Below, piece by piece: positions 44,050 through 64,000 of a DNA stretch of 64,000 nt. Under the pieces are notes generated by a model that saw only the letters and a list, made by a program, of their open reading frames with translations, was not told the origin of the DNA and did not search any database. Position 1 is the first letter of the stretch; every line of letters starts with the position of its first letter. A program made the translations under genes and the position numbers. Origin of the DNA: Thelephora terrestris (taxonomy: Eukaryota > Basidiomycota > Agaricomycetes > Thelephorales > Thelephoraceae); contig WIUZ02000012.1 in NCBI GenBank assembly GCA_015956445.1, positions 868,001 through 932,000 on the forward strand. The letters run 5' to 3'.

Positions 44050-44684
44050 CGCCTTTGTTCCGGCTTCGTTCTCCTCATATCCTCGTGTAGTCGCCGCTGT
44101 ACAGCTTACCTTCCATTTCTCTATCTTTCGTGTACGTTTTTCTCTTCCCCACACTCGTATTGGAGGGGAGCAGTTGTTGCTGAACGACCTTAATTTCGTG
44201 TAGATTTGAAACCGTCATTACCCACGACCTATCGATTATTTAGTTCTGTCCAAGACCCCGATTGCGGAGGTTCATATGATAGATCGTCCATCCCTTTGCC
44301 CGAGTGACCCGAGTGGCCTTGTCTACCCCGTCTGCTCTTCTTTGGCTCACATGTTTTCTCGGAGGTGACTGTTCAACCCCAGTGAGAAATCGCGCGAATG
44401 GGAACGAGCCGGGTTCATCACTGGCGAACCGGAACGAAACGTGGCAACCGGGATCTAGGCCATGCAACTCGGGTCTATCCGAAGTCGCGTGGACTTAATT
44501 AGTTCGCGCGAAGTTCAACTTCTTTAAGCTTCTCTAATTCATTTTGTACACTTAAAACATATCTTCGTGTTATCTGAATATTTGGCGTGAATTGAGATGA
44601 TTTTTTTTCGAAAATTCCTAAGTCCCTCCTTCGCTCTAAGCCTCCCATATCTCCCGGGAGCATATTGCCAACTCCCTTCCTCGA
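44050..44684. other. Left flank of the transposon complex
   Basis: No gene seen. The left end of the DNA transposon should lie here, but no CACTA-type terminal inverted repeat matching the right side could be identified by eye. Confidence 0.4.
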
Positions 44685-44783
44685 ATGTCCCTTGCCTTAG
44701 GTGGAGATGGGGACCCCTCGAAACTTCCTTGCAAGTGTGCGAAGTGTGCGCTTCACGGCGTAAGGTACCTTGCTAGACGGACG

Positions 44784-45137
44784 TGTTGAGCAGGCAGAGT
44801 ATAATATTATACTACTACATGGATACTCTAATCCTTACCTGAAGGGGAGAGGCTTTATAGTTGCTAGTGGGAGAGAGAGAGAGAGAAGCGATTGATTGAT
44901 CTATGGACACATGAGGGGTATATATACTATCTACTCTATTAACGTCACATCTATACAGTGTGACTGATGCATGGTCCGTGCGGCGGCTTAAGGCACGCGC
45001 GCGTTATACCAATCGATCGGGTCACTGATGTGACACCGTCCCTTCGGGTCGCTTATTCAGCGCTCTCCGGCATCGGCTCTCGCACGAAGCGGTAGAGCCG
45101 GTTGACCCGTTGCCGGACACAGACCTTCGGTTCAACA
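44784..45137 (-). repeat. Solo LTR of the copia family, inverted
   Basis: 354 bp reading as the reverse complement of the two copia LTRs at 48385 and 54408, from TGTTGAGC to GGTTCAACA. By eye it differs at about five substitutions and one single-base deletion. It is flanked on both sides by GGACG (44779-44783 and 45138-45142), a perfect 5-bp target duplication, so it arose by insertion followed by LTR-LTR recombination. It sits within the first exon of the Tnp2-type transposase, after codon 33. Confidence 0.95.
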
Positions 45138-45139
45138 GG

Positions 45140-48100
45140 ACGTGGTATAACCACAACCCGGGAGGAAAAAAAGCAAAACTTCCGAACCTTTCCCTACAAG
45201 AAATCGACCATATGATGGACCTCCCTGCCCCCAAGCGTACCAGAAGAGCTAAGAAGCGTTATGGAGAAGAAATCGTGCAGATGCGCGCACACATATCTAG
45301 CCGAATCGCGGGATCGAGCTCTGTACGTATCATATCAGATCAATATATGCGCTCTAGTTAAGTGATATTCATGAAATAATTTTTCCAGCGTGTTGAGAGA
45401 CGTGAGACGACCCCAGAACTGCCCCAGTTTACCCGTCCGATGGATGGATCTCAATTTGAAGAGACTCACCCCCCTGCCGCCTTAAGCAACGAAAACGAGG
45501 AGACTGACCGAGATCGCCTTCGTTCTCCTTCTCCGGCTGGTGACAGAATGGAAGAAGACCTCCTTCCACCCCCTCTTACCCTCACAAGGAACGATGCAGA
45601 TCCCCCAGATGATCAAGACGACCCTCCTCTCGATCCCGATCCCGGCGTACACCCTCCTCGCAATTTTGATTCTGACGAAGATCCCCCACCTCCTGATTCT
45701 GATTCTGACGAAGGCGATCCTCCTTCTGACGAAGATCCTGGCGAAGCTGCTCCTCCTATTGACACTGGTCCTGGTGAGGACGACCCTCCGCTTGACTCTG
45801 ATTCCGAGGAGGAGCCCCATATCACTTTGGATAAACTGAAGACCAGCTTCCAGTTTATCCAGATGGCCAAGGCAGCTACTCTGGAGTCCCAGTTCAGTCC
45901 GGCTGAACTCAGAACGCTTCGGGAGCCTCAGGAGGTCCATTTCTCTCCATCTGACGACCCAGATCTCCGGCTTTCCATCGACTTCTATATCTCGTCGCTG
46001 GATCACACTCAGTCCCAGAGGGCGTACTCTAAGGCTCAGTCTATTGTTCAGAGGACCTTCCCTAACTCGAACATGCTTTCTTATGACCAAGTTAAACGGC
46101 GGGTTTCTGACCTCTCTGGGATTGTCACCTGGAAACACGACATGTGCTTCCATTCTTGCGTCGGCTTCACTGGGCCCTATGCGAACCTAGAGACGTGTCC
46201 TGACCGTCGTTGTCTCGAGCCACGCTACGACCAAGAGGAGCTTCGGAAATCTCATGGGAAGAAGAAAGTTCCTCGAAAGCAATTTACGACCTTCGCTCTT
46301 GGTCCGCAACTACAGGCTCGTCGGAGGAGCTCTGAGATGTCTCGCAAGATGTCCTACCGGTGCGAGAAGACTCGGGAGGAACGAGCTCGCAATCTGGATG
46401 CCGAGGACTATAGCTTCGACGACATCTTCTGCGGCTCAGATTATCTCGAGGCCGTTGAAAAGGGCGAAATCTCTGATGACGATATGGTCGTTATGTTCTC
46501 TATTGACGGCGCGCAACTCTATCGCAACAAAAAATCGGATTGCTGGATCTACATCTGGCTTATTCTGGATCTTGCGCCTGATCAGCGCTACAAAATTCGC
46601 AACATTCTGCCCGGGGGTGTTATTCCAGGTCCTGGGCATCCGAAAAATTTAGATTCCTTCCTTTTCCCTGGATTGGCGCATCTCTCTGCCCTTCAAAAGG
46701 AAGGCTTGCGCATATACGACGCATACCGCCGCAGGGTATACACCTCCCTGATCTTCTTCCTCCTCACTCTTGCAGATGCCATCGCTATGGCAGATCTCAG
46801 CGGCTCTGTTGGCCATCACGGCAAGAGAGGCTGCCGTCTTCTCTGCGAGCTCATCGGGCGAAATAAACTGGGTGGCCCACACTACTATCCAGCTTTACTC
46901 CGACCCCATGATGACCCGGACGATCCAGATCCAGATCCGGAACGCACTCATCCGGACGTCAAAATCTCGAACCTTCCCTTGGTGGATCCACTCAAATATC
47001 GCGCAAATTTGAAGAAGGTCATCACTTCGCGGACCAATGCGGACTATCGAGAGAACCGACTCGACACTGGTATCAGGAAGGCCAGTCTATTTGATTGCCT
47101 CTCCCGTAGCCTCAAACCGCCAACTTGTTTTCCTGGCGACATCATGCATCAGCCGGTTATAAATCTTACGGCTCTGATGTTCGATCTCTGGTGCGATTGC
47201 GAAGGCTGTCGTAAGGCGGATCCTGATGGTGTCTGGGACTGGGCCGTTCTAAATGGAGATGTTTGGAAGACCCACGGAAAGAAGGTTGCGGACGCTGCGG
47301 TTTATTTCCCTCGTTCCTTCGACCGAACCCCTCGGAATCCGGCGAAGAAGATCTCAAGTGGCTATAAGGCCTGGGAACTGCTCCTCTATTTCTACGGCCT
47401 AGGACCCGGTCTCTTTTATGGAATTATTCCAGAGAAGTATTATCGACACTACTGTAAGCTAGTCATCGGTATTCGAATTATCTACCAACGCCGGATCTCA
47501 CGCCAACAACTCCAACTCGCCCACAAACTTCTTCTCGAGTGGGTCCTCGAATTCGAACTTCTGTATTATCAACGGAAGATCGAGCGCCTTCATTTTGTTC
47601 GGCAGTGTGTCCACTCGGTGACTCATCTCGGCCCTGAAACTGCCCGACTAGGACCACCTTCGCTTTCGGCCCAGTGGACCATGGAGCGCGTCATCGGAAT
47701 TTTCGGCTCGCTTATCAAACAGCCGTCCAATCCGTTTGCAAATCTTACGGAACAGGCCAAGAAGGTTGCAGAAATCAATTCCCTTGTTGCCATCTGGCCG
47801 GAACTCAAACCCAAGACGAGTGACCCCCACGGATCGATTGACATTGGCCAAGGATATCTCTTGCTGGGTCCCAAAGATGAGAAGCCCTATGACGTCCCTC
47901 AAGTTGAACAAGACGCCCTCGGAATGTTTTACTCCAGCATCCCAAATCGTGGATCCACCCCTCCAAAATCTATTTACCGATGGGGAAGACTCCGGATTCC
48001 AACTGAACAGGTTGCGCGTTCTTATTGGAAAGAGGAAGTCCGCTCGTCTAGAAGGGCACGTACCGATCGAAATCTTAAGGTACGCGAGCTTACTTCATTC

Positions 48101-48384
48101 GCGTCTGGGTTTTGATCTGCACTAACGTAAATCCCACAGGTTCTCCATCAGGGTGCCGTTCGTATTGCCGAGGCAAGATATTACTTCCGCACAGACATTG
48201 CTGGAGTTCGGGAGACCCTCGCCGTTTGTTCCCTCTACTCCCCCGCCAATGAACGACTTAACCGAGAGACGTACGGTGCCCTCAATGTATTTGAATACAA
48301 GGGTGAGGGTAGTTTAATCATTATTCGAGCGACGTCCATCATCTCAGTTGTAACGATGGTACCATTTGGTGAACAAGTTCAGGG
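45140..48384 (+). mobile_element. Central part of the Tnp2-type DNA transposon
   Basis: This stretch between the two LTR insertions holds most of the transposase, including the 891-codon frame from ATG 45440 to TGA 48115. Two introns are read: 45323-45388 and 48080-48139. The element probably also includes 44685-44783, 54768-54840 and the companion gene at 55024-57573; its outer ends were not located. Confidence 0.7.
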
Positions 48385-48739
48385 TGTTGAACCGAAGGTC
48401 TGTGTCCGGCAACAGGTCAACCGGCTCTACCGCTTCGTGCGAGAGCCGATGCCGGAGAGCGCTGAATAAGCGACCCGAAGGGACGGTGTCACATCAGTGA
48501 CCCGATCGATCGGTATAACGCGCGCGTGCCTTAAAGCCGCCGCACGGACCATGCATCAGTCACACTGTATAGATGTGACGTTAATAGAGTAGATAGTATA
48601 TATACCCCTCATGTGTCCATAGATAAATCAATCGCTTCTCTCTCTCTCTCTCCCACTAGCAACTAAAAAGCCTCACCCCTTCAGGTAAGGATTAGAGTAT
48701 CCATGTAGTAGTATAATATTATACTCTGCCTGCTCAACA
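48385..48739 (+). repeat. 5' LTR of the copia element
   Basis: 355 bp, beginning TGTTGAACCG and ending GCTCAACA, so the ends are the canonical TG...CA with a longer imperfect inverted repeat TGTTGA/TCAACA. It contains a TATA-like tract (tagtatatatacccc near 48595-48608) and a CT microsatellite (about 48635-48652). Confidence 0.97.
48595..48608 (+). promoter_or_regulatory. TATA-like tract in the 5' LTR
   Basis: AGTATATATACCCC within the LTR, the likeliest core promoter for the retrotransposon transcript. Function is inferred from position. Confidence 0.45.
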
Positions 48740-48752
48740 GGTTATGAGCCCG
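48740..48752 (+). other. Primer-binding site complementary to the initiator tRNA-Met anticodon arm
   Basis: GGTTATGAGCCC directly after the 5' LTR is complementary to GGGCTCATAACC, which is the anticodon stem-loop of eukaryotic initiator tRNA-Met with anticodon CAT. Pairing with the inside of the tRNA and not its 3' end is the half-tRNA priming mode known from Drosophila copia and Ty5. Confidence 0.8.
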
Positions 48753-49441
48753 GGCTATGCCCTGTGTTCCAAGCTGCGCCTCTGTGGCTGCGCTGTGAAC
48801 AGGCTCTGACCTTACCTTAGTGCGCCCTCTGTGGCTGCCACTGCGCTATTCAGGCTTGACTGTCTACTTGCTTAGAAAGCACTATTCACCATGTTCTTTT
48901 TGATTTGTAGGCTTACCCCTCATCAAAAGAATATGGAAAACGAACCTACCCTCATCGACCAAACGCCACCTCCAAAGGAGCTTAGAGCGCTGGACTTGGG
49001 GAAAGGGGATAACCTCAGAATGCGTATTAGACACGTACTAGAGGAGATAACAAAGCGCGCCCAAGAAGGCGGACCACGACGAGTCATACGTCGCGTCCCT
49101 AAGCAGTACTTCTTTTAGACATGTCAATAAACCTTCGCCTATCCACTGCGCAGGAAGGGGACTTAGAACAAAAAAGTCAAAAACCCCAAGAAGGGATGAA
49201 ACAGTGACTAGCCAAAGCTGAGCACAACACACATTCGTAGACCCCACAGGGGAGGGTAGTCGATTAACATCTGCCGACGGTGTGGAATGAGGCAATATGC
49301 GATAAAAGCTTCTCACTAAAGTAATCCTTGAAAGGAAAGACTGCTTCTCCCCCTTTCGTTTGCTTCTGGCACCAAAAGAAAAGCGTACGATAAACTGATG
49401 AAACTTGTTATTGGTTGCAGGACTTCCACCTCCCAAAACAA
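48753..49441 (+). other. Long leader of the copia element with a small ORF
   Basis: About 690 bp separate the primer site from the Gag ATG. The leader holds a 75-codon ATG frame at 48891-49118 that is rich in charged residues and ends RRVPKQYFF. A second in-frame ATG lies at 48933. An acceptor-like TTGGTTGCAG precedes Gag (49411-49420), so leader splicing is possible. The frame has no known domain. Confidence 0.5.
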
Positions 49442-52400
49442 ATGTCTTCTCAACTCACCTCCCTCGTCCCCGTCCTCTCCGGCCCGAACTACCAACAGTG
49501 GGCTGGGCCAATGCGTTCATACCTAATGTCGCAAGGACAATGGAGGACGATCCAGAAAAAGGAACCTACCCTCGAGGTATGGCCAAAAACTGAAGCCACC
49601 TATGATGCCGAGAACAACCTATTGACTCAGGCGCAGGAAGGCACTGATAACCAAGACGAAGTAGACGCATGGGCTGAGGCAAATGATAAAGCCCTCGGCA
49701 ACATCCTCCTGCGCCTTGTCCCGGATATCCAGTACAAGTACCGAGCTGAAACCAGCGCTGCCGCCCTTCTCAAAGCAATCGAGAAGGAGTATGGAAAGCC
49801 AGGGATCATCGGAATCTACCTGGAGTTCAAACATGCGATGGAGGTCAAGATCCACGAGGGACAAGACCCCACGCCCGCCTTAGACAAGTTTGCTTCCCAT
49901 ATCGGCCGACTTGAGAGCAACGGGGAAGACGCCGTCATCCCCCCTTTCATCAAAGCGATGATGCTCATGTCAAAGCTTCCTCCGTCATACAATAACATTC
50001 CACAGGCGGTTTGCCAGACGGAGGATCTAACCAAGCTTGATGTGGATGGTCTTCGGCGGTCAATCCTCCTCGCATGGGAGCAGACGTCCAACGGCAAAGG
50101 TAGACAGCAGGCGCATAGGCTGTCCAATGTACAGCGCACTCCTGGAAACCCCAATTTCCAGCAACAGCAGCAGTACAGCGGGGATCAACCCCAGGGCCAA
50201 GGTGGACGCGGGCGTAACCGACGAGGAACCAGAGGAGGCCGAGGAAGGTTCCAACAACAGGCACAACAGTCTGAGGAGCCCCCCATACCCTCTCCCATCC
50301 CCCCTCAACCTCCAGTTGCGTCTAGCTCCGGTATGTCAGCCACTGACTACGGCTTCGCCTCTATGGCAGCCTTTCCCACACGCTCCCTCCCGGTCCATCG
50401 TGAAGGTGCAGGGACCCCTTCCTTCTACCCCTCCGTTCAGAAGGCAAGAGATCTCTCAGCACGACTAGGCGTCACGCCCACGATTGAGACCCTCAAACGA
50501 CTGGAGCGCTCCTGCGAGCAGACGGTCGATCCTCGACCTCGCAAAAAGGCGCGTACCCCGCCAAGCGAGGATGAGGTGAGCCTGGGATGGTCGGGTGATG
50601 AGATGGTTGTTGGATCCCCCGTGTCGGTTGCCGGCCCGTCTGGCGGAAGGTATGAAACAAGTATTCAAGTGTTGAGTAACGATGCTAACGACTCCACAGC
50701 AGCTGAAGATAGACGTAATTCTTCAGTAGTAGCTTCCGAATACACTTGTTTGACCTTGTCCGCCCTGAGTGAAACTGAAGCCGTGTGGATGCTCGACTCT
50801 GGTGCATCCCGGCACTTTACCTTCGATATGAATGATTTTGTTGAATACGAGGCAATCGAGCCCATTCCTCTAAGGACTGCGACTACTTTCACAACGATCA
50901 TCGGTAAAGGAACGGTGATCCTCTACGTAGACGAAAGGGCTGTTAGGCTAAACCCTGTCTATTTTGTTCCTGAAATATCCCATAGGCTATTATCTCTTGG
51001 CCAGTTCCTCAAAAGCGGACTCTTCTCGAGGGGGAGTGCTCGCGAAATTTCACTCTACGAAGAAGAAACTAAGTTTCTTACCTTCCACCCTCGAACCGAG
51101 GATGATAGTATTTACATCATCAGGACTCTCCTCGGGGCGCAACTTACTGCTGCCAAAATTGAAACCATATACGATGCTGATTTTGAGATCATGCACCGCC
51201 GACTGGCTCACCCCTCTAAAGAAGTGATCCAAAAGGCCGGGAAACATGTCAAGGATTTTCCTCATGTCGAAATCCCAAGAGAGCACCTCTGTACTGGATG
51301 CGCGCAAGGAAAGATGACCAATAAAACCTTTCCCCCTTCCAGCACCAGAGCGACTGCCCCTTTCGAGCTGATCCACTCGGACCTGAAGACCTTCCCCATT
51401 GAATCCTATCGCAAATACAAGTACTCAATCGTCTTCTATGACGACTATACCTCACACGCCTGGACCATGAATTTGCGCACTAAGGACGCTGCACTCGTGG
51501 CTACCAGGCATTTCCTGGCTATGGTTGAAACCAAGTACCAGAAGAGAGTACGCCGATGGATGTCCGATGCCGGGGGAGAATACACGTCCCTAACATTTAC
51601 AACGATGCTCAAGGAAAAGGGAATCGAGATCCTCCAGTCTATCCCGCATGCACACCAGCAAAATGGCCGCGCGGAAAGGATCATTCGAACATTGATGGAT
51701 AAGGCAGAATCCATGAGATTACAGGCTTGCCTCCCTCAATCCTGGTGGGAATTCGCCATTGACCACGCAACTCACGTTTACAATCGAACGCCGAATCGTC
51801 GCCTAAACTGGCAGACCCCATTCCAGCTATTGAATGGAAGTAAGCCATCGATTGATCATCTTCGGGTCCTCGGTTGCGGAGCATACGTCTTCATCCCGGA
51901 AGAAGTACGGGTAAATAAACTCGCACCCCGGTCGGAGTTGATGACCTACCTAGGGACCCACCCGGGAGGAAAAGGATGGATCTTCATGCGCGGACCAAAT
52001 AACATTATCTTCTCCGCCGCACAAGCCACCTTCGATGAGTTGCACTTTCCAAAGTGCCCAACTGCCAGTACACGGCGCAACACACGGCTGCAATCTGCTG
52101 CGCCACCCTTACCCAGTCATCACTGTCATAAAGACGGTGACTGCCAGTGTCCCCTTCCAGGAGGACAAGAGGAGGATGACGCAACACCCTCAGCGCGTCC
52201 CAAACCTACCCCCAAGCCTTCCTCAAAAGGCAAGGAACGTGCTATTGAGCCCGCACCACAGCCACAAACGCCGGTGCAATCTAGAGCGCCCAGTTCGGAG
52301 CCGCCGAGATCGCCTACGCCCAGCTCTAGCTCTGATTCCGGCCCTGAAGATGCACCACCCGCTCCGCCAGCGGTTATGCCTCCATCACCTATTAAAGCTC

Positions 52401-54331
52401 GGAGGCCTCAGCGTGAGCGGAAAGTACCGGCCAAGCCCGGCAATGTTTACGGTAGTAAACACCCGGTAGAAATAATTAAGTCTACCCGGCGAATGAAGGA
52501 TTGGAAGAAGGTTGTCGGGGATTTTTCCGCGGCACCTAGGCGCGGGCGAAGTTCAGGAACAGTTCCCGGACCTAGCACGCAGCCACTCCCTGAGAGAGAA
52601 TCCTCCGCCGAGGAAGAGACTGAAGTGGTGTCGGAGTCCGAAGATGAGGTTGAGAAATCCGTTGAACCATCCGGATTTACCACCCCTGAGGAGGACACTG
52701 ACGCCCTTCTAGCTAGGCTATGCCGGGAAGGGGGAGTAGAACTCCAAAACCTCTTGATTTCGAAGGCTGTCTCACCAACCGCCGACGGAAAAACTCCAAA
52801 AGAATGGAAATACCGAGACATCGCCACACTACCACAGGCTGAGCTCGAGGAATGGAGGACAGCTTGCAACGAAGAGTTGGAAGCTCTTCGCAAGCGTAAC
52901 GTATACGACCTGGTGGAGCGCCCCCGAGGCCGCAAGGTTATTAAAAACCGCTGGGTATTCGACCAGAAACCAGATGGTCGCAAGAAAGCCCGCTTAGTAG
53001 CGAAAGGCTTCTCACAGGTTGAGGGAATGGACTACGATGCCGTGTTCTCCCCCGTTGTCCGATTCGAGACAGTGCGCCTAATATTTGCAATGGCCGCCCT
53101 CGGAGGATGGGTCCTTAAAGGACTTGATGTTCGAAATGCGTACCTATATGGCGAACTCGACGAGGAAATCTACATGGAACAACCAGAGGGATTCGTAGCT
53201 CCTGGAAAAGAGACTCATGTTCTCCGCTTAAAGCGTGCCCTCTACGGACTGAAACAAGCCGGACTCGCATGGTGGCGAGCCCTGAAACGGTCCATGGAAA
53301 AGCTCGGATTCAAATCCTTGAGCTCAGATGCCGGGATCTTCATTTACCAGGATAAAGATGGAAAATTCGTAATTGCGTTAATCTATGTAGACGATGCCAT
53401 TTTTACCGGACCCCACACAGCGCTTACGGAGCAGCTCAAGGGGGAGTTCATGAAGATATGGGAAACTAGGGATCTAGGAGACCTAACCGATTTCCTCCGC
53501 ATGAGGATCACCCGACATGGCAGCAAGATTTCTATAGATCAATGCGCCTACCTCCAGACAGTCCTCGAGCGATGTGGGATGCAAAATGCAAAAGTTGCTC
53601 CAACCCCCCTTCCAGCCGGGTATGTACCAACTCCATCAACAGAGGTAGCATGCCCGGAAAGACGAAGCAGGTTCCAGACCATAATCGGTTCCTTACTGTA
53701 CCTAATGCTGGGTACCCGACCTGATATCGCCTTCGCGGTCACCAAACTTGCGCAATATGCTGCAAACCCATCAAAAGAGCACGTCGAGAAAGCGCTGTAT
53801 ATCTGCCGCTATTTAATCGGGACTTCCAAATATCGATTAACCTACGACGGAGATTCACGGGAAGGTATCTCAGCCTGCACCGACTCAGACTGGGCCTCAG
53901 ACCCCACTCAGAGACGATCCCAAAGTGGATACTTTGTCCGAATGGCAAAAGGACTCATCTCATGGACCTCAAGAGCGCAGAGAACCATTGCGCTGTCGTC
54001 CACTGAGGCTGAATACATGGCGCTTTCCGATTGTAGCCGCCAAGTAGTCTGGATGCATACCCTACTGGGGGAGCTCGGCTATGACCTTAAAGTCATCCCA
54101 ATCTGCGGAGATAACCAAGGCTCGATCTTTATCGCCTCAAACCCGGTCACTGAAAAGAGGTCGAAACACATTGACATCCGCTATCATTATATTCGCGAAG
54201 TCATCAATGATGGACGCGTGGTAGTGTATTTCATTCCCGGAGATGACAACCCCGCGGATCTCCTGACGAAGAACCTTGGAGTCGTCAAACTCAGAAAATT
54301 TAGAGATGCCTTAGGCCTTGAATTCTTCTGA
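49442..54331 (+). CDS. Copia Gag-Pol polyprotein
   Basis: One frame of 1,629 residues from ATG 49442 (MSSQLTSLVPVLSG). Gag has the UBN2-like start GPNYQQWAGPMRSYLMSQGQW. It ends in a Gly/Arg-rich patch (GRGRNRRGTRGGRGRF) and I see no CCHC zinc knuckle. The protease has DSGAS. The integrase has the HHCC finger (MHRRLAHPS, CTGCAQGK), then catalytic D (HSDLK), D (MSDAGGEY) and E (NGRAERII). A proline-rich spacer (about 52170-52400) precedes reverse transcriptase: KNRWVFDQKPDGRKKARLVAKGF, LDVRNAYLYGELDEEIYM and the catalytic YVDD. RNase H has TDSDWASDP, SSTEAEYMAL and GDNQGS. No stop or frameshift was seen, so all enzymes look functional. Confidence 0.96.
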   Translation: MSSQLTSLVPVLSGPNYQQWAGPMRSYLMSQGQWRTIQKKEPTLEVWPKTEATYDAENNLLTQAQEGTDNQDEVDAWAEANDKALGNILLRLVPDIQYKYRAETSAAALLKAIEKEYGKPGIIGIYLEFKHAMEVKIHEGQDPTPALDKFASHIGRLESNGEDAVIPPFIKAMMLMSKLPPSYNNIPQAVCQTEDLTKLDVDGLRRSILLAWEQTSNGKGRQQAHRLSNVQRTPGNPNFQQQQQYSGDQPQGQGGRGRNRRGTRGGRGRFQQQAQQSEEPPIPSPIPPQPPVASSSGMSATDYGFASMAAFPTRSLPVHREGAGTPSFYPSVQKARDLSARLGVTPTIETLKRLERSCEQTVDPRPRKKARTPPSEDEVSLGWSGDEMVVGSPVSVAGPSGGRYETSIQVLSNDANDSTAAEDRRNSSVVASEYTCLTLSALSETEAVWMLDSGASRHFTFDMNDFVEYEAIEPIPLRTATTFTTIIGKGTVILYVDERAVRLNPVYFVPEISHRLLSLGQFLKSGLFSRGSAREISLYEEETKFLTFHPRTEDDSIYIIRTLLGAQLTAAKIETIYDADFEIMHRRLAHPSKEVIQKAGKHVKDFPHVEIPREHLCTGCAQGKMTNKTFPPSSTRATAPFELIHSDLKTFPIESYRKYKYSIVFYDDYTSHAWTMNLRTKDAALVATRHFLAMVETKYQKRVRRWMSDAGGEYTSLTFTTMLKEKGIEILQSIPHAHQQNGRAERIIRTLMDKAESMRLQACLPQSWWEFAIDHATHVYNRTPNRRLNWQTPFQLLNGSKPSIDHLRVLGCGAYVFIPEEVRVNKLAPRSELMTYLGTHPGGKGWIFMRGPNNIIFSAAQATFDELHFPKCPTASTRRNTRLQSAAPPLPSHHCHKDGDCQCPLPGGQEEDDATPSARPKPTPKPSSKGKERAIEPAPQPQTPVQSRAPSSEPPRSPTPSSSSDSGPEDAPPAPPAVMPPSPIKARRPQRERKVPAKPGNVYGSKHPVEIIKSTRRMKDWKKVVGDFSAAPRRGRSSGTVPGPSTQPLPERESSAEEETEVVSESEDEVEKSVEPSGFTTPEEDTDALLARLCREGGVELQNLLISKAVSPTADGKTPKEWKYRDIATLPQAELEEWRTACNEELEALRKRNVYDLVERPRGRKVIKNRWVFDQKPDGRKKARLVAKGFSQVEGMDYDAVFSPVVRFETVRLIFAMAALGGWVLKGLDVRNAYLYGELDEEIYMEQPEGFVAPGKETHVLRLKRALYGLKQAGLAWWRALKRSMEKLGFKSLSSDAGIFIYQDKDGKFVIALIYVDDAIFTGPHTALTEQLKGEFMKIWETRDLGDLTDFLRMRITRHGSKISIDQCAYLQTVLERCGMQNAKVAPTPLPAGYVPTPSTEVACPERRSRFQTIIGSLLYLMLGTRPDIAFAVTKLAQYAANPSKEHVEKALYICRYLIGTSKYRLTYDGDSREGISACTDSDWASDPTQRRSQSGYFVRMAKGLISWTSRAQRTIALSSTEAEYMALSDCSRQVVWMHTLLGELGYDLKVIPICGDNQGSIFIASNPVTEKRSKHIDIRYHYIREVINDGRVVVYFIPGDDNPADLLTKNLGVVKLRKFRDALGLEFF

Positions 54332-54398
54332 GCACATACCTCCAACTTACTACAGTCCAGTTCCCACCAATGAAGTTATATAGGGAGCTGTACTTAGT

Positions 54399-54407
54399 AA
54401 GGGGGAG
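54399..54407 (+). other. Polypurine tract
   Basis: AAGGGGGAG immediately before the 3' LTR, the expected plus-strand primer for reverse transcription. Confidence 0.9.
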
Positions 54408-54762
54408 TGTTGAACCGAAGGTCTGTGTCCGGCAACAGGTCAACCGGCTCTACCGCTTCGTGCGAGAGCCGATGCCGGAGAGCGCTGAATAAGCGACCCG
54501 AAGGGACGGTGTCACATCAGTGACCCGATCGATCGGTATAACGCGCGCGTGCCTTAAAGCCGCCGCACGGACCATGCATCAGTCACACTGTATAGATGTG
54601 ACGTTAATAGAGTAGATAGTATATATACCCCTCATGTGTCCATAGATAAATCAATCGCTTCTCTCTCTCTCTCTCCCACTAGCAACTAAAAAGCCTCACC
54701 CCTTCAGGTAAGGATTAGAGTATCCATGTAGTAGTATAATATTATACTCTGCCTGCTCAACA
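54408..54762 (+). repeat. 3' LTR of the copia element
   Basis: 355 bp that read the same as the 5' LTR over the whole length by eye. It is followed by the second target duplication CAGGG (54763-54767), after which the transposase frame resumes. Confidence 0.97.
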
Positions 54763-55023
54763 CAGGGACGTTCTACCTTCTTTTTTTTAGTAGAAAAATT
54801 TGCACTAGGCGTAGTTGATACAGGTGTAATTTTAGAGTAGGGCAAGGATATACAGGATAGCTGGTGTACCGTGATTTAATGTATTTTGATCGGAGTAGAT
54901 ACACTTCGCCTCGGTTAGATCAGATAAGCCCGATCGGACTCCGTGTTTCTGCGTCCGTTCGCCCAATTTTTTTCTCTTTTTCTCTTTTCTCAGCTTTTCT
55001 TCCTACCACCACCTTCTTCCAGG

Positions 55024-57573
55024 ATGCCATCGTCTCCGCCCATTTTTTCCAGCGACTTTGAGATCGGAGTTAGCTCGGATGCTCTCTCGGCCTCATCCCA
55101 CCTATCTGCTCGGAACACAGGGTTCCTGCCGCTCTCGGATATGGGCCCGCCAAGCCAAAACAATCCTCGCAAATTTGGCGGGTTTTTTTCCCCTCCAGGT
55201 GGCGATCCTATGCGCTCCCAGCAAATGTTCATGGGATCTAGCTCTGTACGTACTCTATGTTCCCTCTGGTTGATATTCTATATCTTTAAAAGCGTCCGGG
55301 ATCTTATCACGGCCCTCCCTACACCCAAACGACCCCATACGACCACGTTTCTCGCATGAGTGTTCCGTTTGAAGAGTTCACAAGGGTGCGCAACGATCGT
55401 GATTTCTGGCGCACCAAATACCACGAGTTAAAGTGAGTTCTCCTGCCGCATATATGCTATCATATAGCTTCATTTGTCGAATATATGCGCATAATTATTG
55501 ACTATATGCGCCTATTTTAACTTGTATATCGCACTAACTTAACAAAACTACATCTAGGAGTACCCACGACACTGTCATGGAGAATATCATCGACAACGTC
55601 GCCGATATCTCCAAGAAAATCTCCGCTCGGATCATAGCGTCGCAAACGACCCCCAAAGTGAAGACCCTCGATGATCCCGACGCCCCCATGACGATATCCA
55701 TCGCATCTGATTCATCTGGAACCTCCGACCCACCTCAGCCATCGTCGCTGTCCACCCCAAAATACACCCGACAGCCACTTCCCCAGCTTGACCCGGCGAC
55801 ATACCCACTTGTCAATCACTGGGGAAACGACGGTTACAACGGGAACCGAAAGGGTGGGAAGAGGGGTGGTGAGGATACCCTCGAGGAGAAGGCGCCGAAG
55901 ACCTCCGTCTTGTCCAGTTTCATGGAAGACGAAACCGGGAGGGAGATTCCTGAGAAGGTTAGGAAAGCCGCGCGCAAGACGGCTAAACAATTTTTCCAGG
56001 AGATCCTTGACAGCAACCGCGCTCCCGCCAACTGGGGAGAAGCTCCCCGCGACATCGAAAATGAGCTCGTCCACATCCTGGAGAGCGAATTTTTTTGGCT
56101 CCGACTCTGTGAGGGTCACTGGAAAGCCATCAAAGTGGCTACCAACAGCTACTCCCAGTGGCACCGCAAGGCTCTATTGCGTAAGGCCGCTGCCGAAGCT
56201 AAGAAGACAGCAGCCATGAGAAGGGCTGAGGCAGAGGTAATTGACGTCGACACCGATGACGCCGATGAAACCAGGACCTCCAAACGTCCCAGGGACGAAG
56301 AGGAGGAGGCTGCAGGACGTCAGAAACGTCATCGCATTGACGAGCCTCAACCCACCCCTCGACCTCGCCCCACAGTAGTCCAGCCCAATGTTCCACGCAA
56401 ACAGGTATGAGTGTCGTTTTTTATAGACTGTATTTGCTGCTAATACCACCTGCTAGAATATCTTGTACGAATTTATGGGTATATGCACGAGTGAAGTCAC
56501 GTACTGACTCCATCTGCACAGTGACAAGATGAAACTTACGCCGGCCGTAGAAATGATTCCGTTGACTCAGGTATGTGATTCTGGGGTCGTCTGTATGGTT
56601 CAATTGATTTCCCTGCCTCAAGGTTGTCTTGGAAGAAAATCTACGCCCGTCTGCTTCTGGTCTCTCCCGGCGTGCATCCAACCATCCTCCCGCTTCGCTT
56701 GACTCTGCACCTGTTCCTGCCCCCCTCGAAACCTCTCTTGCACTTGCTGCTGCTATCGCTGCTGGTCCATCTGAACCACCTGTCCTCGGTCCTGCATCTA
56801 ATCCTACGCCTGTCTCTGTTGCTGCGCCGACACCTGTTGTTGCTCCTGTCTCTGTTTCTGTGCCGGCATCTGTTTCTGCGACTGCTCTTGTTCTTGAGCC
56901 TCTCCCAACGACTCCCCTCGAACGTTCTGACCCACCTGCTGCTCAGGTCAACCCTGGTAAAGCCCCTAGCCCTGCGAAAAAAACTCCGGCTCTTCTTCTC
57001 GCCCCAATGGAAGACTCTGCCGGCCCCTCTGCCTCTGGTTCCGGCCTTGCTGATAACTCGGACGTTCAGCAAGACACTCAAGTTGCTCAGACGGCTCCGA
57101 AGAAGAAGGCGACCACGAAGAAGGCAAAGGCGGCCCCAAAGAAGGCAAAGGCGGCCCCAAAGAAGGCTCCCGCGAAGAAGAAATTCAAGAAACTCACCGG
57201 AAAGTATGTTGTATTCTTATATTTTCTTCATTCACCACGCTTACATCTATTCCAGGGAATTATTCTACGGCGATTGGAAGGCAGCCAATCCTCAAAAAGA
57301 ACAGGTAGACTTCGAGAACGCCTGGAAGGCTGGCAGGCCGGTTGACTGCAAGGTATGTCACGAATCCCTTTGTATGTTATCTTATCTGACGCTGACTTCG
57401 ATCAGATGTATAATGCACGCGCGCGTGAACTTGTAAGTCACAATTATATTCTTAACTAATTGCGATGTCTATCTAACGAAACCTTCCAACAGAATGACGA
57501 CCGGGAGCAATACGAGAAAGAAGAGGCTGAGAAGGAACAGGCCGAAAAGGAACAGGCCGAGAAAGAGACTTAG
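55024..57573 (+). CDS. Companion gene of the Tnp2-type transposon, function unknown
   Basis: Eight exons (55024-55245, 55293-55432, 55558-56404, 56529-56570, 56623-57203, 57256-57352, 57406-57432, 57493-57573) give 678 residues in a continuous frame. I do not recognise an enzyme. Order: Ser/Pro-rich start; DRDFWRTKYHELK, a short coiled segment; a helical core with FFWLRLCEGHWKAIKVATNSYSQWHRK; an acidic stretch and KRPRDEEEE; a long Pro/Ala/Ser-rich linker; a lysine repeat of the histone H1 kind (about 57090-57190, units like KKAKAAP); then LFYGDWKAANPQKEQVDFENAWKAG; and a heptad tail EKEQAEKEQAEKE. The architecture suggests a nuclear, nucleic-acid-binding accessory protein, by analogy with TnpA of plant En/Spm. 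It lies on the same strand 183 bp after the transposase stop and looks undamaged. Confidence 0.75.
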
Positions 57574-58181
57574 ATGCGTTGTTGTGTCCGTCGCGAGAGG
57601 GACTGGGTATGGTGTGGTATGGGGACGGAAGGAAATTAGATATCAGTAGACCCGCATTGAACGTCACCGTCTTTAGATCCAAATAGAAATTGTTCGCTCT
57701 CGCTAGATCCCGGTGTGAATTCGAGATCTATTTGGATCTATTCAAATCTAACCGTACAAACGAGTCCATTAAATATTGCTACGATTAGAAACTAATAGAA
57801 CAAATCTAACATCAGCAAACAATCTGATCACTCATTAGCACTACGCGGGCCGATCGTCGTGTTTCACGGATTTTGAGGGGAGAAATGTCACTTCGGGAAA
57901 AATAAACTCGTCTTCCATGCATGCCGGAGGTTTGATGCACGGAAGCCCATTTCGCATGCAGCATTTCTAGCCGCAAGAAGTTCTGACCTACGCTTAGCAA
58001 TTTTTTGATTGATCAGCTCACACTGTATGCGAAGAAAAGAGACATTTGATTGCTGTATGAATCAAGAGAAGCGCGTGACATAGCCAGTAATTAGACTATT
58101 CACTAAAACAGCCATCAAGGCAGGGATACGAAAGAAAAAAATGGCGCAGCCTCGAGGCGGGAAAGGGGGAATGGTCAATGG
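57574..58181. other. Right flank of the companion gene
   Basis: No gene seen. Contains a perfect 13-bp inverted repeat (57674-57686 and 57728-57740) and AT-rich DNA. The right end of the DNA transposon may lie here, but no matching terminal repeat was found by eye. Confidence 0.4.
57674..57740. repeat. 13-bp perfect inverted repeat
   Basis: TAGATCCAAATAG at 57674 and its complement CTATTTGGATCTA at 57728, with 41 bp between. It could form a stem-loop. It lies 100 bp after the companion gene stop and may be a transcript 3' end element or a subterminal transposase site. Confidence 0.6.
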
Positions 58182-58873: not shown

Positions 58874-60091
58874 CGACTCTCGGTGTTCCTCGACTGTGGA
58901 ATGTAAGCAATTTGTAGTTTAAGTGAGATAAATGACGTACGGTGAACTTGCCACAAAGCCTTCGGAGTCCGAGAGGGCAGAGATGGCAGTTAGAAGGTCG
59001 GGTCCTCGGTTCAGAGGCGCGAGCCTCTAGGGAATCTGCGGGAAGCGAATGAAAGGTGAGAGAGAAAGTCGGGAAGAGAACGGGAGAACGAGGCAGAGGA
59101 CGACGGGAAAGCCAGAGAACGAAACTACCGATAACCAACAAAGGGAAACGTCGGGATACGTCGGGACAACAGAGTCAGAAATTGGGACACCAGCGGGACA
59201 CAAGAGACCAGAGGGACAACGAGAACGAGGGCGAGACGACGAGGGAACCGAAGGGAGGACCGTAGCAACGCTGCTAGGCCTCAGAAGAGAGAGAGAGAGA
59301 GAGGAGAGAGAGGAGGGAACGCTGCTGATTGATTGCTGGAGTCTATCGAATACAGGGGCCTTTATATACAATACTGGGGGCTCTGAGAACGAAGGGACCA
59401 AAGGAAACGAACCAAAGTGATGTCAAAAGACCTAATGACGCGTCTATGACATAGGGAAGGCAAGGGATCGAAGGGAACAGCGAGGGAAAAGAATGTGGTT
59501 GGAAAACGAACCAGAGGGAGGCCTAGAGTCGAGAGCGAAGCGATCGATCGAGACGTGATCGGGACACAGGAAACGGAGATAGGGAAAGGAAAGCTAAAGG
59601 TAAGAGCCGTGATGGAGGATCGGGAAATGGTCGGGACACGATCGGGACTGGTCGGGACGTAATCGGGACGAGGTGTGAAGGAATAAGAGTCTGAGAGAAA
59701 CTATCTACTAGAGAACGCGGGTCGCAGGTCTAAGGTCGAAGGGCGCAGGTCGCAGGTCGCAGGTCTAAGTCGCAGGTCGAAAGGGAAAACGTCGGGAAGT
59801 CGCGAGGGAGAATAGGGAGAGAGGGACGTGTGGCGAAGTGAAGGGACAGGCAAATCCTCGTCGGGACAGTCGAGAATGCTGAGGGAGGTCATCCAGACCT
59901 CGCGCAGCGGTTGTCGATAGTCGAGAGAAGGTCGCGATTCCGGATAGTGTCCGAAATACGGTCACGACAACGCGTCACCCCTCGTTCCATCGCATATATA
60001 GCAGTATTGGTGTGCAGGCTCCCCTATCTCCTGGCTCAACCACTAACCTGCTATCTCCAGCTTCACTTTTCTCTTACAGATGCGACGCATT
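58874..60091. other. Purine-rich intergenic block
   Basis: From about 59040 to 59960 the plus strand is strongly G/A-rich. It contains repeated TCGGGAC words (about eight copies, clustered at 59628-59671), GA microsatellites (59288-59318) and a heptamer array near 59710-59780. No gene is supported; the open frames are composition artefacts. Confidence 0.55.
59705..59782 (+). repeat. Imperfect tandem array of CGCAGGT
   Basis: About six copies of GGTCGCA/CGCAGGT separated by TCTAAGG-type spacers. Likely a minisatellite. Confidence 0.6.
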
Positions 60092-60388
60092 GGATGAACC
60101 ATTACAACGGGTTCAATTACGAGGAGTTTTGGGAGTTTATCGTCGACTTCTTTGAGGCTGACGAGACCCCGGAGGGGCAAGAGGCATCAACTCAACTCCT
60201 TGAATGGTGGAACAAGTGTGTTCGTGGTTCCAATCTCATCTCTGCTATTACTGATAAACCCTCGCAGGGAAGTCTTCCCGAGGTCCTCATCCACACGTGC
60301 AGTGGCTCAAACATCGGTACGAAAGGCATCTTTTGCGATCCTACGCCAACAGCGTCAGGCTGCCCGATCATCTCAACCGCCCTTGTAG
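60092..60388 (+). CDS. Small two-exon ORF, function unknown
   Basis: An exon from ATG 60092 (MNHYNGFNYEEFWEFIVDFFEADETPEGQEASTQLLEWWNK) splices by a GTGTGT donor (about 60218) and a CTCGCAG acceptor (about 60268) to EVFPRSSSTRAVAQTSVRKASFAIL and ends SSQPPL at TAG 60388. A splice acceptor precedes the first exon (TCTTACAG at about 60080), so this may be the last part of a larger gene whose 5' end is missing or unrecognised. The acidic WW-containing helix followed by a basic tail resembles C-termini of uncharacterised mushroom proteins; no domain name can be given. Confidence 0.5.
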
Positions 60389-61087
60389 CGTCCAGTAGCA
60401 CTTTCGATGTCCATTTGCTCGACATAATATAGCTGAATTCTGGTTATCCAATGTGTGATCCCCAATGCAGACTGAGTGTATGTGGGCCTGCATAGCTGCA
60501 CGTTTCGGTTGGGTCGAGAGGTTGTAGACACGTACACCATAATATACTACTGACAATACGAAGATAATCCGATGACAGGCTGCAAGTTTCCACCAGAATT
60601 TTGAAGGTCTCACGAAGTTATTTAGTGTTGCAGCGAGTTGCAATCTACGGCTGGGAAATTGTAGCATTTGTACAGGAGACGATAGCAAATTGTCGGGCTT
60701 TCCTCAACTTGCCAATGCCGATGAATTACCGCCACAATTTTGAGGGGCTCACGAAGTTACATGGCGTTATAATCGGTTATAACCCACGTTCCGGGAATTG
60801 TACCGCTTATGGTCGATTACAGTGCTGATGGCCCAGTGTTGGAAGATAATTGACCGAAACAAAGTCAACGTGTCAAGTGAAGTGAAGTGACAGTGACTTT
60901 ATATGATTCACTTCACGCGATTTAAACTCGGCCTTCTCGGAGATCTGATATGTGTCAAGATTGTAAAACCTAGCCTGCAGCCGCGCGGCGTGCCAAACAG
61001 CTTACAAAATGTACGCGTGTTATCCTCGAGGCCAGATACAATAGAAATACTGAGTTACGGCCCTCACCGGCTCAATCCCTTCCCCCC
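60389..61087. other. Left flank of the hAT transposase
   Basis: Contains a degenerate direct repeat (60596-60680 and 60735-60815, sharing TTTTGA..GGNCTCACGAAGTTA and GGGAATTGTA) and a subterminal palindrome-like AGTGAAGTGA...TCACTTCAC (60879-60915). The hAT left end probably lies here, but its exact terminus and 8-bp target duplication cannot be set without the right end. Confidence 0.45.
60596..60815 (+). repeat. Degenerate direct repeat, two copies
   Basis: Two related segments about 136 bp apart, each starting AATTTTGA followed by CTCACGAAGTTA and later GGGAAATTGTA or GGGAATTGTA. They may be subterminal repeats of the hAT element. Confidence 0.5.
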
Positions 61088-64000
61088 ATGCCCCCGAAAT
61101 CCTCTCGTACTTGGTGGCGCCTCCAGTTCTACGACCACCCCGGTACCTCGTCAAAACGCGAGGATGCGTTCTATGTTGCCCCATCAGGCAACAAGGTCAA
61201 CAAGGTGTACTGCATGCCTTGCTTTGACATCGATGTTGCAGAGATCACCGCAAGAGACGAGTCAGATCTTGGCCTCGGTCGACGAAATAATGCTCGATCT
61301 AGGGAGGAGATAGTAACCTACTGTATGTCATAATCCACTTGTTCTATCACTCGTGTGGCCATTGACTTGATGGCCCTCTAATAAATTTAGTGTGGAGCAT
61401 ACGGAAAAGCTCTGCACAACCGCCGGACAACGAGCGCGGGTTTATCCACTACGCCGGTTCAACACTTTTGAACCACGTGAAGGTCTGCTCCAGACAGACT
61501 GCGGAGAACCGAGCTCGAGCGAAGCATGAAGGAGCTTCACCAAGGAAGTCACACAATTCAGGTGGCACCAGTCTGGACGTCCAACCGATGTGGCCGGTAT
61601 CCATCCCGGGTCCGTTTCAGCATTCTCCGCCATACACACAGATGTTGCCCCCGCCATCGTTGCCTCCAACACGAACATGTTCACCAGCAGTCTCCATTTC
61701 TGCCCTCTCAGCTTCCCTACCTTCGCCATTTTGCGGCCTCACGGTCCCGCTAAACGATGGCCCGCAACTCAGTCCAGGCTACCCCTTCATGGATCTCCCC
61801 ATCCCGATATCGCAATCGCAATCGCAATCCGTCTTAATTGACAATCCTGGCGTGTGGCTCCCCGAGTTTCAACGAAAGTTCGAGGAGAGAATTGCGAGGC
61901 TCACTGTCTCTGCCGGTATGCCACTTTCGTGGGTCGACAACCCAGAGTGGATTGACTTCATCAACGACTTTGTTCCTTCCGCCCGGTCTCCATCACGGAA
62001 AGTCCTCACTAATCGCCTAATCCCCATGGTTGCGAAGAGTTATCGGGATATGGCAAAAATTGCAGCTAGAAACCAGAATGTGACTCTCCAAGCGGACGGG
62101 TGGACGGGTGTGAATTTCCACCATTTGCTCGCATTCATGATTTCATTCAATAACCAGGTTTGGTTTGAAACACCTTCACAAGACCTCTAATAATTGACCC
62201 TTTTCTCAGATTCATACACTCAATGTTCATGATACCTCATCTGAACGGAAGACGGCTGAGAAACTTGTGATGCACCTCGAGAATGCGATCTCGACCATAC
62301 GAACCGACTACTTCGCCTTTCCTGTTGCGGTTGTCACTGATGCATCCGGAGAATGTCGCAAGGCTCGCCGAGTTCTCGCACTAAAGTACCCTGACATAAT
62401 GTTCCTTGATTGTTATGCTCATCAGGTCAATCTCGTTGTTGGGGATTACTTCAAATCTCAAGCATCAGTGCTGGATTCTGCGGACAATGCAACAGAGTTG
62501 ATCTCTTGGCTTCGCAGCAAGACCCAGATCCTTGCATCGTTGAGAGAAGTTCAGGTCAAATATGGCGAAAATGCTGTCAAGGCGGTCATCCGTGCTGTTC
62601 TCACACGATGGACAGCTCATTATCAAGCATATGCCAGGCTCTTGGACCTTCACTCAGTGCTCGTCATGGTGGTCGATATGGATTCACGCCGACCAGAGAA
62701 GGAGAGGTGTGTGATTGCGGGAGACGCTAAGGCAAGAAAAAAAGCAAAGGATATGGTCATGTTAATCAAGGATAACAACTTCTGGATGTCCTTGCTTCGG
62801 TATGGCCGTTATTCATGATTTACGTATGCATCTTTGACTGACAGATATCTAGGATGAAGATGCACTTAGAACCACTCGCGATCGCAGCAAATGTCACTCA
62901 AGCAGCATTTTGTCGTCTTGACACAGTTCTTTTAACCTTTGGATTCCTCGTCATGCGGTACGAGCGAATGTCAGACGAGGCTGATCATGTTGCATCTACA
63001 TCAATCATCTCCAGCCTTGAGAAACGTTGGATGGCGGCGGATCAAGATATTTTTATCGCCGCTGTAATCATAAACCCCTTCTTTCGGGCAGAGCCATTTG
63101 GCCGTCATGCAAGGTTTGTTGTTGCTGGGATCATCGAGTTTCTTGGACGTCTCTATGTCCGATTCTTTCGGGAGGTACCCCCACAGGCATTCAACACTGA
63201 ACTGCGCCACTACCTCACAGAAGAGGGACAGTATTCTGAGCTGCATGCAACATGCTACAGGCACAAGGCATCAGCAAGACAACAGGTTTGTTTTACTTTC
63301 ATGTCCCCATCCCACCCAGAAACTAACAAATTTACAGGAGATACAACTAGACCCACTTGAGGTTTACCGTGATCTGAGCTTCTCCTCAGAACCACACACC
63401 CCATTTCGCTGCCTGGCCATTCGTCTCCTCTCAGTCACCGCCAACTCTGCCACTTGTGAACGCCTTTTCAGTGTGTTTGGAAACACGCTCACGAAGCTCC
63501 GAAACCGAATGGGGACTTCGACTCTGAGCTCTATTGCAGAGCTGAAGATGCATGTTCGCAACGAACACCGCCTCAATTCGACAAAGTCACGGATGAAGCG
63601 CATGTTCACCACTCGCTCGAAAACCACTTCCCTTGCCGACGAATCCTCATTGCTCTCGATGGCTGTACAGCCACCAAGCCCACAGCAAATTCCGTCAATA
63701 AGCGATGACGACACTATGTCATCAACCCACAACGAGCCCACTGCCCATATACCAGGCTTCCGCGAATTTGTCTCCGATCATCACTCTGCACCCATCAACA
63801 ATGACGAGGCACCCATCTATCCCCCACTAGGAGGCAAACTGAGCCTCAGTCAGCTCTTCAACTTTGGGAATTCACACTGGGTTGAGTTATATGAGGAATG
63901 CGCTGCAAGGAGTTTTGAGGAGGAGCTCGCATTGTATGATTTACTTAACGAAGATTCCGCAGCAGGCGAAGGCATGGAGGTTGATGTGGATGAAACGACA
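61088..64000 (+). CDS. hAT-family transposase with DUF659 domain, truncated by the window end
   Basis: A cut-and-paste DNA transposase. The start is MPPKSSRTWWRLQFYDHPG at 61088. An N-terminal BED-like zinc finger has VYCMPCFD and, after the first intron, HVKVC. A Ser/Pro-rich linker follows. The DUF659/RNase H-like core has LQADGWTG (first Asp), VVTDASGECRKARR (second Asp), CYAHQVNLV (the conserved Cys/His pair) and RWTAHYQAYARL. The C-terminal hAT dimerisation region is FRCLAIRLLSVTANSATCERLFSVFG with the catalytic Glu. At least four introns (after EIVTYL, ISFNNQ, MSLLR and ASARQQ). No in-frame stop was seen in the joined exons. The acidic C terminus is still open at 64000. Confidence 0.9.

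What the first reader, a model, noticed from the sequence alone, without database searches (positions are those of the whole stretch)
44685..54840. Two independent LTR insertions of one copia family inside a single transposase gene
An inverted solo LTR breaks the first exon at codon 33 and a complete copia element breaks the last exon. Each has its own perfect 5-bp target duplication (GGACG, CAGGG). Dropping both insertions gives exons whose lengths add up to an exact frame ending in TAG at 54840. This fixes the order of events and shows the DNA transposon was intact before the hits. The copia family may prefer, or tolerate only, other mobile elements as targets.
Basis: seen in the sequence. 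Interest (0 to 1): 0.75.

Follow-up and report, generated by a model that had tools for sequence, protein, structure and literature searches.

The report
Transposase gene hit twice by copia
In a genome that looks fungal, two separate jumps of one copia retrotransposon family broke the same recently copied DNA-transposon gene, and untouched sister copies prove it; this is ordinary nesting of mobile DNA, unusually well documented.

Summary
A minus-strand solo LTR (44784-45137, TSD GGACG) and a complete copia element (48385-54762, TSD CAGGG, identical 355-nt LTRs, open gag-pol frame) sit in one Tnp2 (PF02992) transposase gene; without them the exons give 3288 nt ending in TAG at 54840. The decisive test, empty-site paralogues, is met: 3 of 3 near-identical Tnp2 copies in the same genome (C2, C6, C12) are uninterrupted at both points and keep an intact 1095-aa frame. 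The solo LTR is of another copy lineage than its neighbour (5 substitutions and 1 gap apart; 1 substitution from the C14 LTRs): two insertions. Both came after this Tnp2 copy parted from its sisters (12 private substitutions in 6153 columns). Which LTR came first is not fixed. An older LTR of the wider family (89%) sits in another Tnp2 gene on C3. Young copies lie in or at repeats in 8 of 10 cases against at least 6 of 20 random sites (p = 0.02, fading to 0.40 under the strictest count). 'Tolerates only mobile elements' is rejected; a mild repeat bias is unproven. Ordinary nesting, new example.

The parts
44378..57809 (+). Tnp2-type (PF02992) DNA transposon copy carrying the two LTR insertions; 5' terminus CCCAGTGAGAAA at 44378; homology to the C2 and C6 sisters stops at 57809, so about 105 bp at its 3' end, TIR included, are missing here
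44685..44783 (+). transposase exon 1, first part (33 codons)
44779..44783 (.). target duplication GGACG, left copy
44784..45137 (-). solo LTR, 354 nt, inverted to the gene; 1 substitution from the C14/C41 LTRs
45138..45142 (.). target duplication GGACG, right copy
45143..45322 (+). transposase exon 1, second part
45389..48079 (+). transposase exon 2, holding the Transposase_21 (PF02992) match
48140..48384 (+). transposase exon 3, first part
48380..48384 (.). target duplication CAGGG, left copy
48385..48739 (+). 5' LTR of the complete copia element
49415..54331 (+). open gag-pol frame of the copia element (gag, pre-integrase, integrase core, RVT_2 in copia order); listed from a TTG
54408..54762 (+). 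3' LTR of the complete copia element, identical to the 5' LTR
54763..54767 (.). target duplication CAGGG, right copy
54768..54840 (+). transposase exon 3, second part, ending in TAG

Best explanation
A Tnp2-type DNA transposon was copied very recently within this genome (sister copies on C2, C6, C12). After the copy at this locus had parted from its sisters, two members of a young, multi-copy Ty1/copia family integrated into its transposase gene by ordinary integrase strand transfer with 5-bp staggered cuts: one, of the C14-like LTR lineage, in exon 1 in antisense orientation, later reduced to a solo LTR by LTR-LTR recombination; another, of a slightly different lineage, in exon 3 in sense orientation, still complete. 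Both break the transposase frame of this copy. Shown: insertions, duplications, empty sites, intact sisters, separate LTR lineages. Inferred: integrase mechanism, origin of the solo LTR by recombination, loss of transposase function.
For: Perfect 5-bp duplications at both. Uninterrupted sequence across both junctions in 3 of 3 near-identical paralogues: first site 100% (C2), 100% (C6), 99.75% (C12); second site 99.5, 99.75 and 100%, over 400 nt each. Those paralogues keep the GTAC/AG splice sites and a single terminal stop, with 3-6 residue differences. LTRs of the complete element are identical; the solo LTR differs from them by 5 substitutions and 1 gap but from the C14/C41 LTRs by 1 substitution. 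5-bp duplications also at 8 of 8 other young insertions read and at the C3 solo LTR. 12 substitutions private to this Tnp2 copy in 6153 ungapped columns.
Against: Nothing found against two separate insertions. That the solo LTR was once a full element is not shown. No allele of this very locus without the insertions was found: the left host flank piece has only its own match in a capped list, so the empty sites are paralogous, not allelic.
Confidence: 0.96

Rival explanations
1. One event: the inverted solo LTR and the complete element come from a single insertion followed by inversion, self-insertion or gene conversion.
For: Same family, 3.2 kb apart, opposite strands.
Against: Different, perfect target duplications; the solo LTR is 5 substitutions and 1 gap from the neighbour's LTRs but 1 substitution from the LTRs of a distant copy; the stretch between the two is colinear with the three sisters.
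Confidence: 0.02
2. The copia family is steered to repeats or silent chromatin (integration bias), so double hits in a transposon are expected.
For: 8 of 10 young insertions in or at repeats against at least 6 of 20 random 220-bp sites, p = 0.019. 3 of 130 insertions derived from the partly listed LTR ends lie in or beside Tnp2 matches; with the same margins 0.55 expected, P = 0.018. The C20 and C23 insertions lie in one repeat family. 6 neighbour pairs under 5 kb, the window pair among them, against 1.9 expected; reached in 27 of 2000 uniform draws.
Against: The window pair is the reason for the test: without it 6 of 8 (p = 0.044), 5 of 8 with C60a as a miss (p = 0.20), 4 of 8 counting only whole-site DNA copies (p = 0.40), and the p for all ten is 0.058 if two more control pieces were hidden repeats. 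Outside the window 1 Tnp2 hit against 0.54 expected, P = 0.42. 2 of 10 sites are not in multi-copy repeats. Loss of insertions in genes by selection gives the same pattern.
Confidence: 0.25
3. The solo LTR in exon 1 acts as an intron: the duplication's last G plus the LTR's TG start gives GT, the LTR's CA end plus the duplication's first G gives AG, and removal leaves exactly 3 extra nt in frame.
For: Arithmetic: 359 nt added, GT-AG span of 356 nt, 3 left over.
Against: Its donor reads GTGTTG, unlike the GTAC donors of the gene's own two introns; the other duplications in Tnp2 genes, CAGGG and in gene sense GCTCC, lack the needed ends; the copia element in exon 3 breaks the gene anyway; no RNA data.
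Confidence: 0.03

Closest known systems
Ty1/copia (Pseudoviridae-type) LTR retrotransposons of fungi
   Same: TG...CA LTRs, 5-bp target duplications, integrase before reverse transcriptase, RVT_2
   Different: Nothing seen that sets it apart; its place within copia was not tested and no call names the host
Nested and clustered TEs of Laccaria bicolor (PMC3411680, passages seen)
   Same: Copia elements nested in or next to other elements
   Different: Here both empty sites and the recency of the target copy can be read off intact sister copies
CACTA / Transposase_21 transposons, including CCC-ended TRC elements of animals (PMC1636069, passages seen)
   Same: PF02992 match; inverted ends starting CCC
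   Different: 7-bp target duplications in 4 of 4 elements with both ends read; those passages report 2 bp, and passages of PMC12730594 give 2-5 bp for this clade

Membership tests
Ty1/copia LTR retrotransposon | integrase upstream of reverse transcriptase in one polyprotein, RVT_2 type | tested here: met
   rve 647-744, RVT_2 1162-1399 of the 1638-aa frame
Ty1/copia LTR retrotransposon | paired LTRs with TG..CA ends and short target duplication | tested here: met
Ty1/copia LTR retrotransposon | tRNA-type primer binding site after the 5' LTR | not tested
   GGTTATGAGCCCGGGC follows the LTR; a likeness to the initiator-tRNA anticodon arm is recalled only
Solo LTR | single full LTR flanked by one perfect duplication, no internal sequence | tested here: met
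   44784-45137, GGACG on both sides
CACTA (EnSpm) transposon | Transposase_21 (PF02992) transposase | tested here: met
   38 bits, cut-off 28.6
CACTA (EnSpm) transposon | termini CAC..GTG | tested here: not met
   CCCAGTGAGAAA..TTTCTCACTGGG in C2, C6, C12
CACTA (EnSpm) transposon | 2-3 bp target duplication | tested here: not met
   7 bp in 4 of 4 elements with both ends read: sisters C2, C6, C12 and the 80% relative on C1
Plavaka-B (element in the C12 sister) | termini CATCA..TGATG, 2-3 bp duplication, Plavaka transposase | tested here: met
   CATCAGTAAA at both ends, duplication TC, PF18759 at E 7.5e-24 and 1.1e-23; definition from passages of PMC12730594
Plavaka-B (element that starts at 57810) | termini CATCA..TGATG, 2-3 bp duplication, Plavaka transposase | tested here: inconclusive
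   terminus CATCAGCAAACAATC here and a matching end on C9 with a 2-bp AA overlap; no transposase looked for

The most novel reading that the evidence does not exclude
This copia family is steered by its integrase to young, CpG-methylated DNA-transposon bodies (Tnp2 genes among them), so that one mobile family brakes another; the hit copy's private substitutions, 11 of 12 at CpG, would be a mark of that chromatin. Against its being a special mark: two of the three sisters show the same lean (C12 9 of 12, C6 3 of 3; C2 12 of 28). Odds lowered from 0.10 to 0.08 after the control rose to 6 of 20.
Probability: 0.08. Interest if true: 0.6.

Novelty: new member of a known kind. Interest (0 to 1): 0.3.

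Why it matters
It is a clean natural record of retrotransposons disabling a DNA transposon: the target's state before the hits, its intact sisters and the recency of both parties can be read from one assembly. If an integration bias for transposon bodies were proven on fresh insertions, it would mean that mobile families limit each other. As it stands it is a well-documented case of something common.

Tried and rejected
Single-event origin of the two LTRs: rejected. Exclusive preference for mobile elements: rejected. Other Tnp2 genes broken by the same LTRs: of 30 fetched Tnp2 loci (L009-L038) searched with the LTR only the window's own matched; comparison of the position lists gave one more, C3, with duplication GGAGC and a 99% empty site in the C7 paralogue L031. 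Several Tnp2 matches are split by gaps of 0.6-10.6 kb; by my own reading of the lists, none of the listed LTRs lies in the gaps I checked. A first clustering count and a first Tnp2 expectation were faulty (rows sorted by strand; expectation without the margins used for the hits); replace them. Solo LTR as intron: kept only as a minor rival. The host was not identified: the 120 listed of 258 kinesin relatives and 120 listed of 806 Tnp2 relatives bear no organism names. Papers: in the listings of searches, and in passages of PMC12730594, PMC1636069, PMC3411680 and PMC9674265, I saw no report of this pair of insertions or of a 7-bp duplication for a Transposase_21 element; the library is partial and I read no paper whole.

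Repeat test, rows. Counted as in or at repeats: window solo and window full (one gene), C14 (by gypsy pol domains, not by copy count), C20, C23 (by contiguous matches of both its flanks to C20's right flank; its junction was not sent as a query), C12, C56, C60a (left flank at the edge of a repeat). Counted as misses: C5, C60b. C41 was dropped as a copy of C14 (flanks 99.9-100% alike) and C51 as a copy of C5 (98-99%). Control: 20 random sites from 19 contigs of known length (27.6 of 40.6 Mb). Searches showed another copy for 5 of 20 (one only on a duplicate contig, C35); a further search of the remaining 15 added one, L075, so at least 6 of 20. Every search scored only 40 candidates and one high-copy piece filled most places each time, so fainter copies of other control pieces may still be hidden; that flatters the contrast. 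The numbers (5 of 20) are replaced.

Full report
What is there. The window is bases 868001-932000 of contig C4 in an unnamed 40.6-Mb genome of 60 contigs. Genes with short introns, kinesin and TLC-domain genes and the transposon types suggest a fungus, probably of the Agaricomycotina; that is inference, no call names the host. The claimed features were checked directly: solo LTR, complete copia element, two different perfect 5-bp duplications, and a frame of 3288 nt once both insertions are skipped. The finding's coordinates are right.

Empty sites. A search of the whole genome with the 891-aa exon-2 frame gave 56 matches, four of them at 99-100% identity, the window copy included. The other three, on C6, C2 and C12, carry uninterrupted sequence over both junctions: 400, 400 and 399 of 400 bases at the first, 399, 398 and 400 of 400 at the second, in that order. 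All three have the same splice sites and one terminal stop and differ from the window's exons by 3 (C6), 5 (C2) and 6 (C12) residues. More distant paralogues also run through without the LTR: C1 at both sites (84.9 and 77.4%), one C58 locus (L032) at the first (84.9%), another (L014) at the second (77.6%).

Two insertions, not one. The two LTRs of the complete element are identical. The solo LTR differs from them by 5 substitutions and 1 gap, but from the four LTRs of C14 and C41 by one substitution, a CpG to TpG change. Each thus comes from its own source lineage. The solo LTR most likely arose by LTR-LTR recombination of a full copy; that step rests on general knowledge and is not shown.

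Time. The four Tnp2 copies differ by 0.24-0.67%. The window copy has 12 substitutions that none of the others shares, in 6153 ungapped columns; 11 of the 12 are CpG to TpG or CpA. The same lean is seen in two sisters (C12 9 of 12, C6 3 of 3) and less in C2 (12 of 28), so it is not special to the hit copy. Both LTR hits fall in the short span since this copy parted from its sisters. They cannot be put in order, since neither lies inside the other and only one has an LTR pair.

Preference. The partly printed position lists give 163 distinct LTRs, about 130 insertions, 33 of them pairs. Among 10 independent insertions of the young subfamily the targets are: this Tnp2 gene (2), a gypsy pol gene (C14), one high-copy repeat family (C20, C23), a repeat with two other uninterrupted copies at 98-99% (C12), a high-copy inverted repeat (C56), the edge of a repeat beside an F-box gene (C60a), a site with relatives only at 77-79% (C60b) and a site whose only other match is a duplicate contig (C5). 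No Tnp2 match was found in the flanks of the other eight. The control is at least 6 of 20 random sites. The excess, 8 of 10, has p = 0.019; it is 0.044 without the window, 0.20 with C60a as a miss as well, 0.40 when only whole-site DNA copies count, and 0.058 for all ten if two control repeats stayed hidden. By position, 3 insertions lie in or beside Tnp2 matches against 0.55 expected with the same margins (P = 0.018); without the window 1 against 0.54 (P = 0.42). Two of ten young insertions falling within 3.3 kb has a chance of 0.007 under a uniform spread and 0.026 if only a quarter of the genome is open. These numbers hint at a tendency for repeats, which selection against hits in genes explains as well as targeting does.

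A second Tnp2 gene hit. On C3 a solo LTR of the wider family (89% identical) lies in a diverged Tnp2 gene, with duplication GGAGC and a 99% uninterrupted site in the C7 paralogue. Like the window's solo LTR it is antisense to the gene.

The target element. The DNA transposon has 12-bp inverted ends CCCAGTGAGAAA in the sisters and makes 7-bp duplications in 4 of 4 elements where both ends were read (C2 TATAAGG, C6 ATTCATC, C12 GTTCACC, and the 80% relative on C1 CGTGATC). Its transposase hits PF02992. CCC-ended Transposase_21 elements with 2-bp duplications are known in animals (PMC1636069, passages); passages of PMC12730594 give 2-5 bp for this clade and 7 bp for Kyakuja, which lacks inverted ends. 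The window copy lacks about 105 bp at its 3' end: at 57810 another terminus begins (CATCAGCAAACAATC), like Plavaka-B, and a Tnp2 3' end was found on contig C9 followed by the same 17 bases that precede the element's 5' end here. The C12 sister carries a Plavaka element of about 6.6 kb with duplication TC. So this small group of sister copies has been hit by at least two kinds of element; C2 and C6 are whole.

Verdict. It is ordinary nesting of transposons, unusually well documented.

Noticed in passing
44378-57809; L039-L045, L082, L083, L013: Tnp2/PF02992 transposon with CCCAGTGAGAAA inverted ends and 7-bp target duplications in 4 of 4 elements with both ends read, longer than the 2-5 bp given for this clade in the passages seen.
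   Followed up: partly
57810 and L081 (C9:883300-886300): The Tnp2 copy stops at 57809 before a Plavaka-B-like terminus; a Tnp2 3' end lies on contig C9, followed by the same 17 bp (GGAGGTGACTGTTCAAC) that precede the element at 44361-44377. Either C4 and C9 are joined wrongly in the assembly or a rearrangement parted them.
   Followed up: partly
L045 1615-6600 and L082: Plavaka transposon (PF18759) of about 6.6 kb in the C12 sister copy, 2-bp duplication TC.
   Followed up: partly
44378-57300 against C2, C6, C12: Private substitutions lean to CpG: window copy 11 of 12, C12 9 of 12, C6 3 of 3, C2 12 of 28, as expected from deamination of methylated CpG.
   Followed up: partly
L080 310-663 (C3): Solo LTR of the wider family in another Tnp2 gene, antisense, duplication GGAGC.
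   Followed up: yes
48685 and 48910: The copia LTR carries CAG/GTAAGG and the leader carries TTTGTAG/G: a possible leader intron spanning the primer binding site. Motif reading only.
   Followed up: no
59911-63360: Frames with a DUF6698 match and a sub-threshold DUF659 match right of the Tnp2 copy, probably further mobile elements.
   Followed up: no
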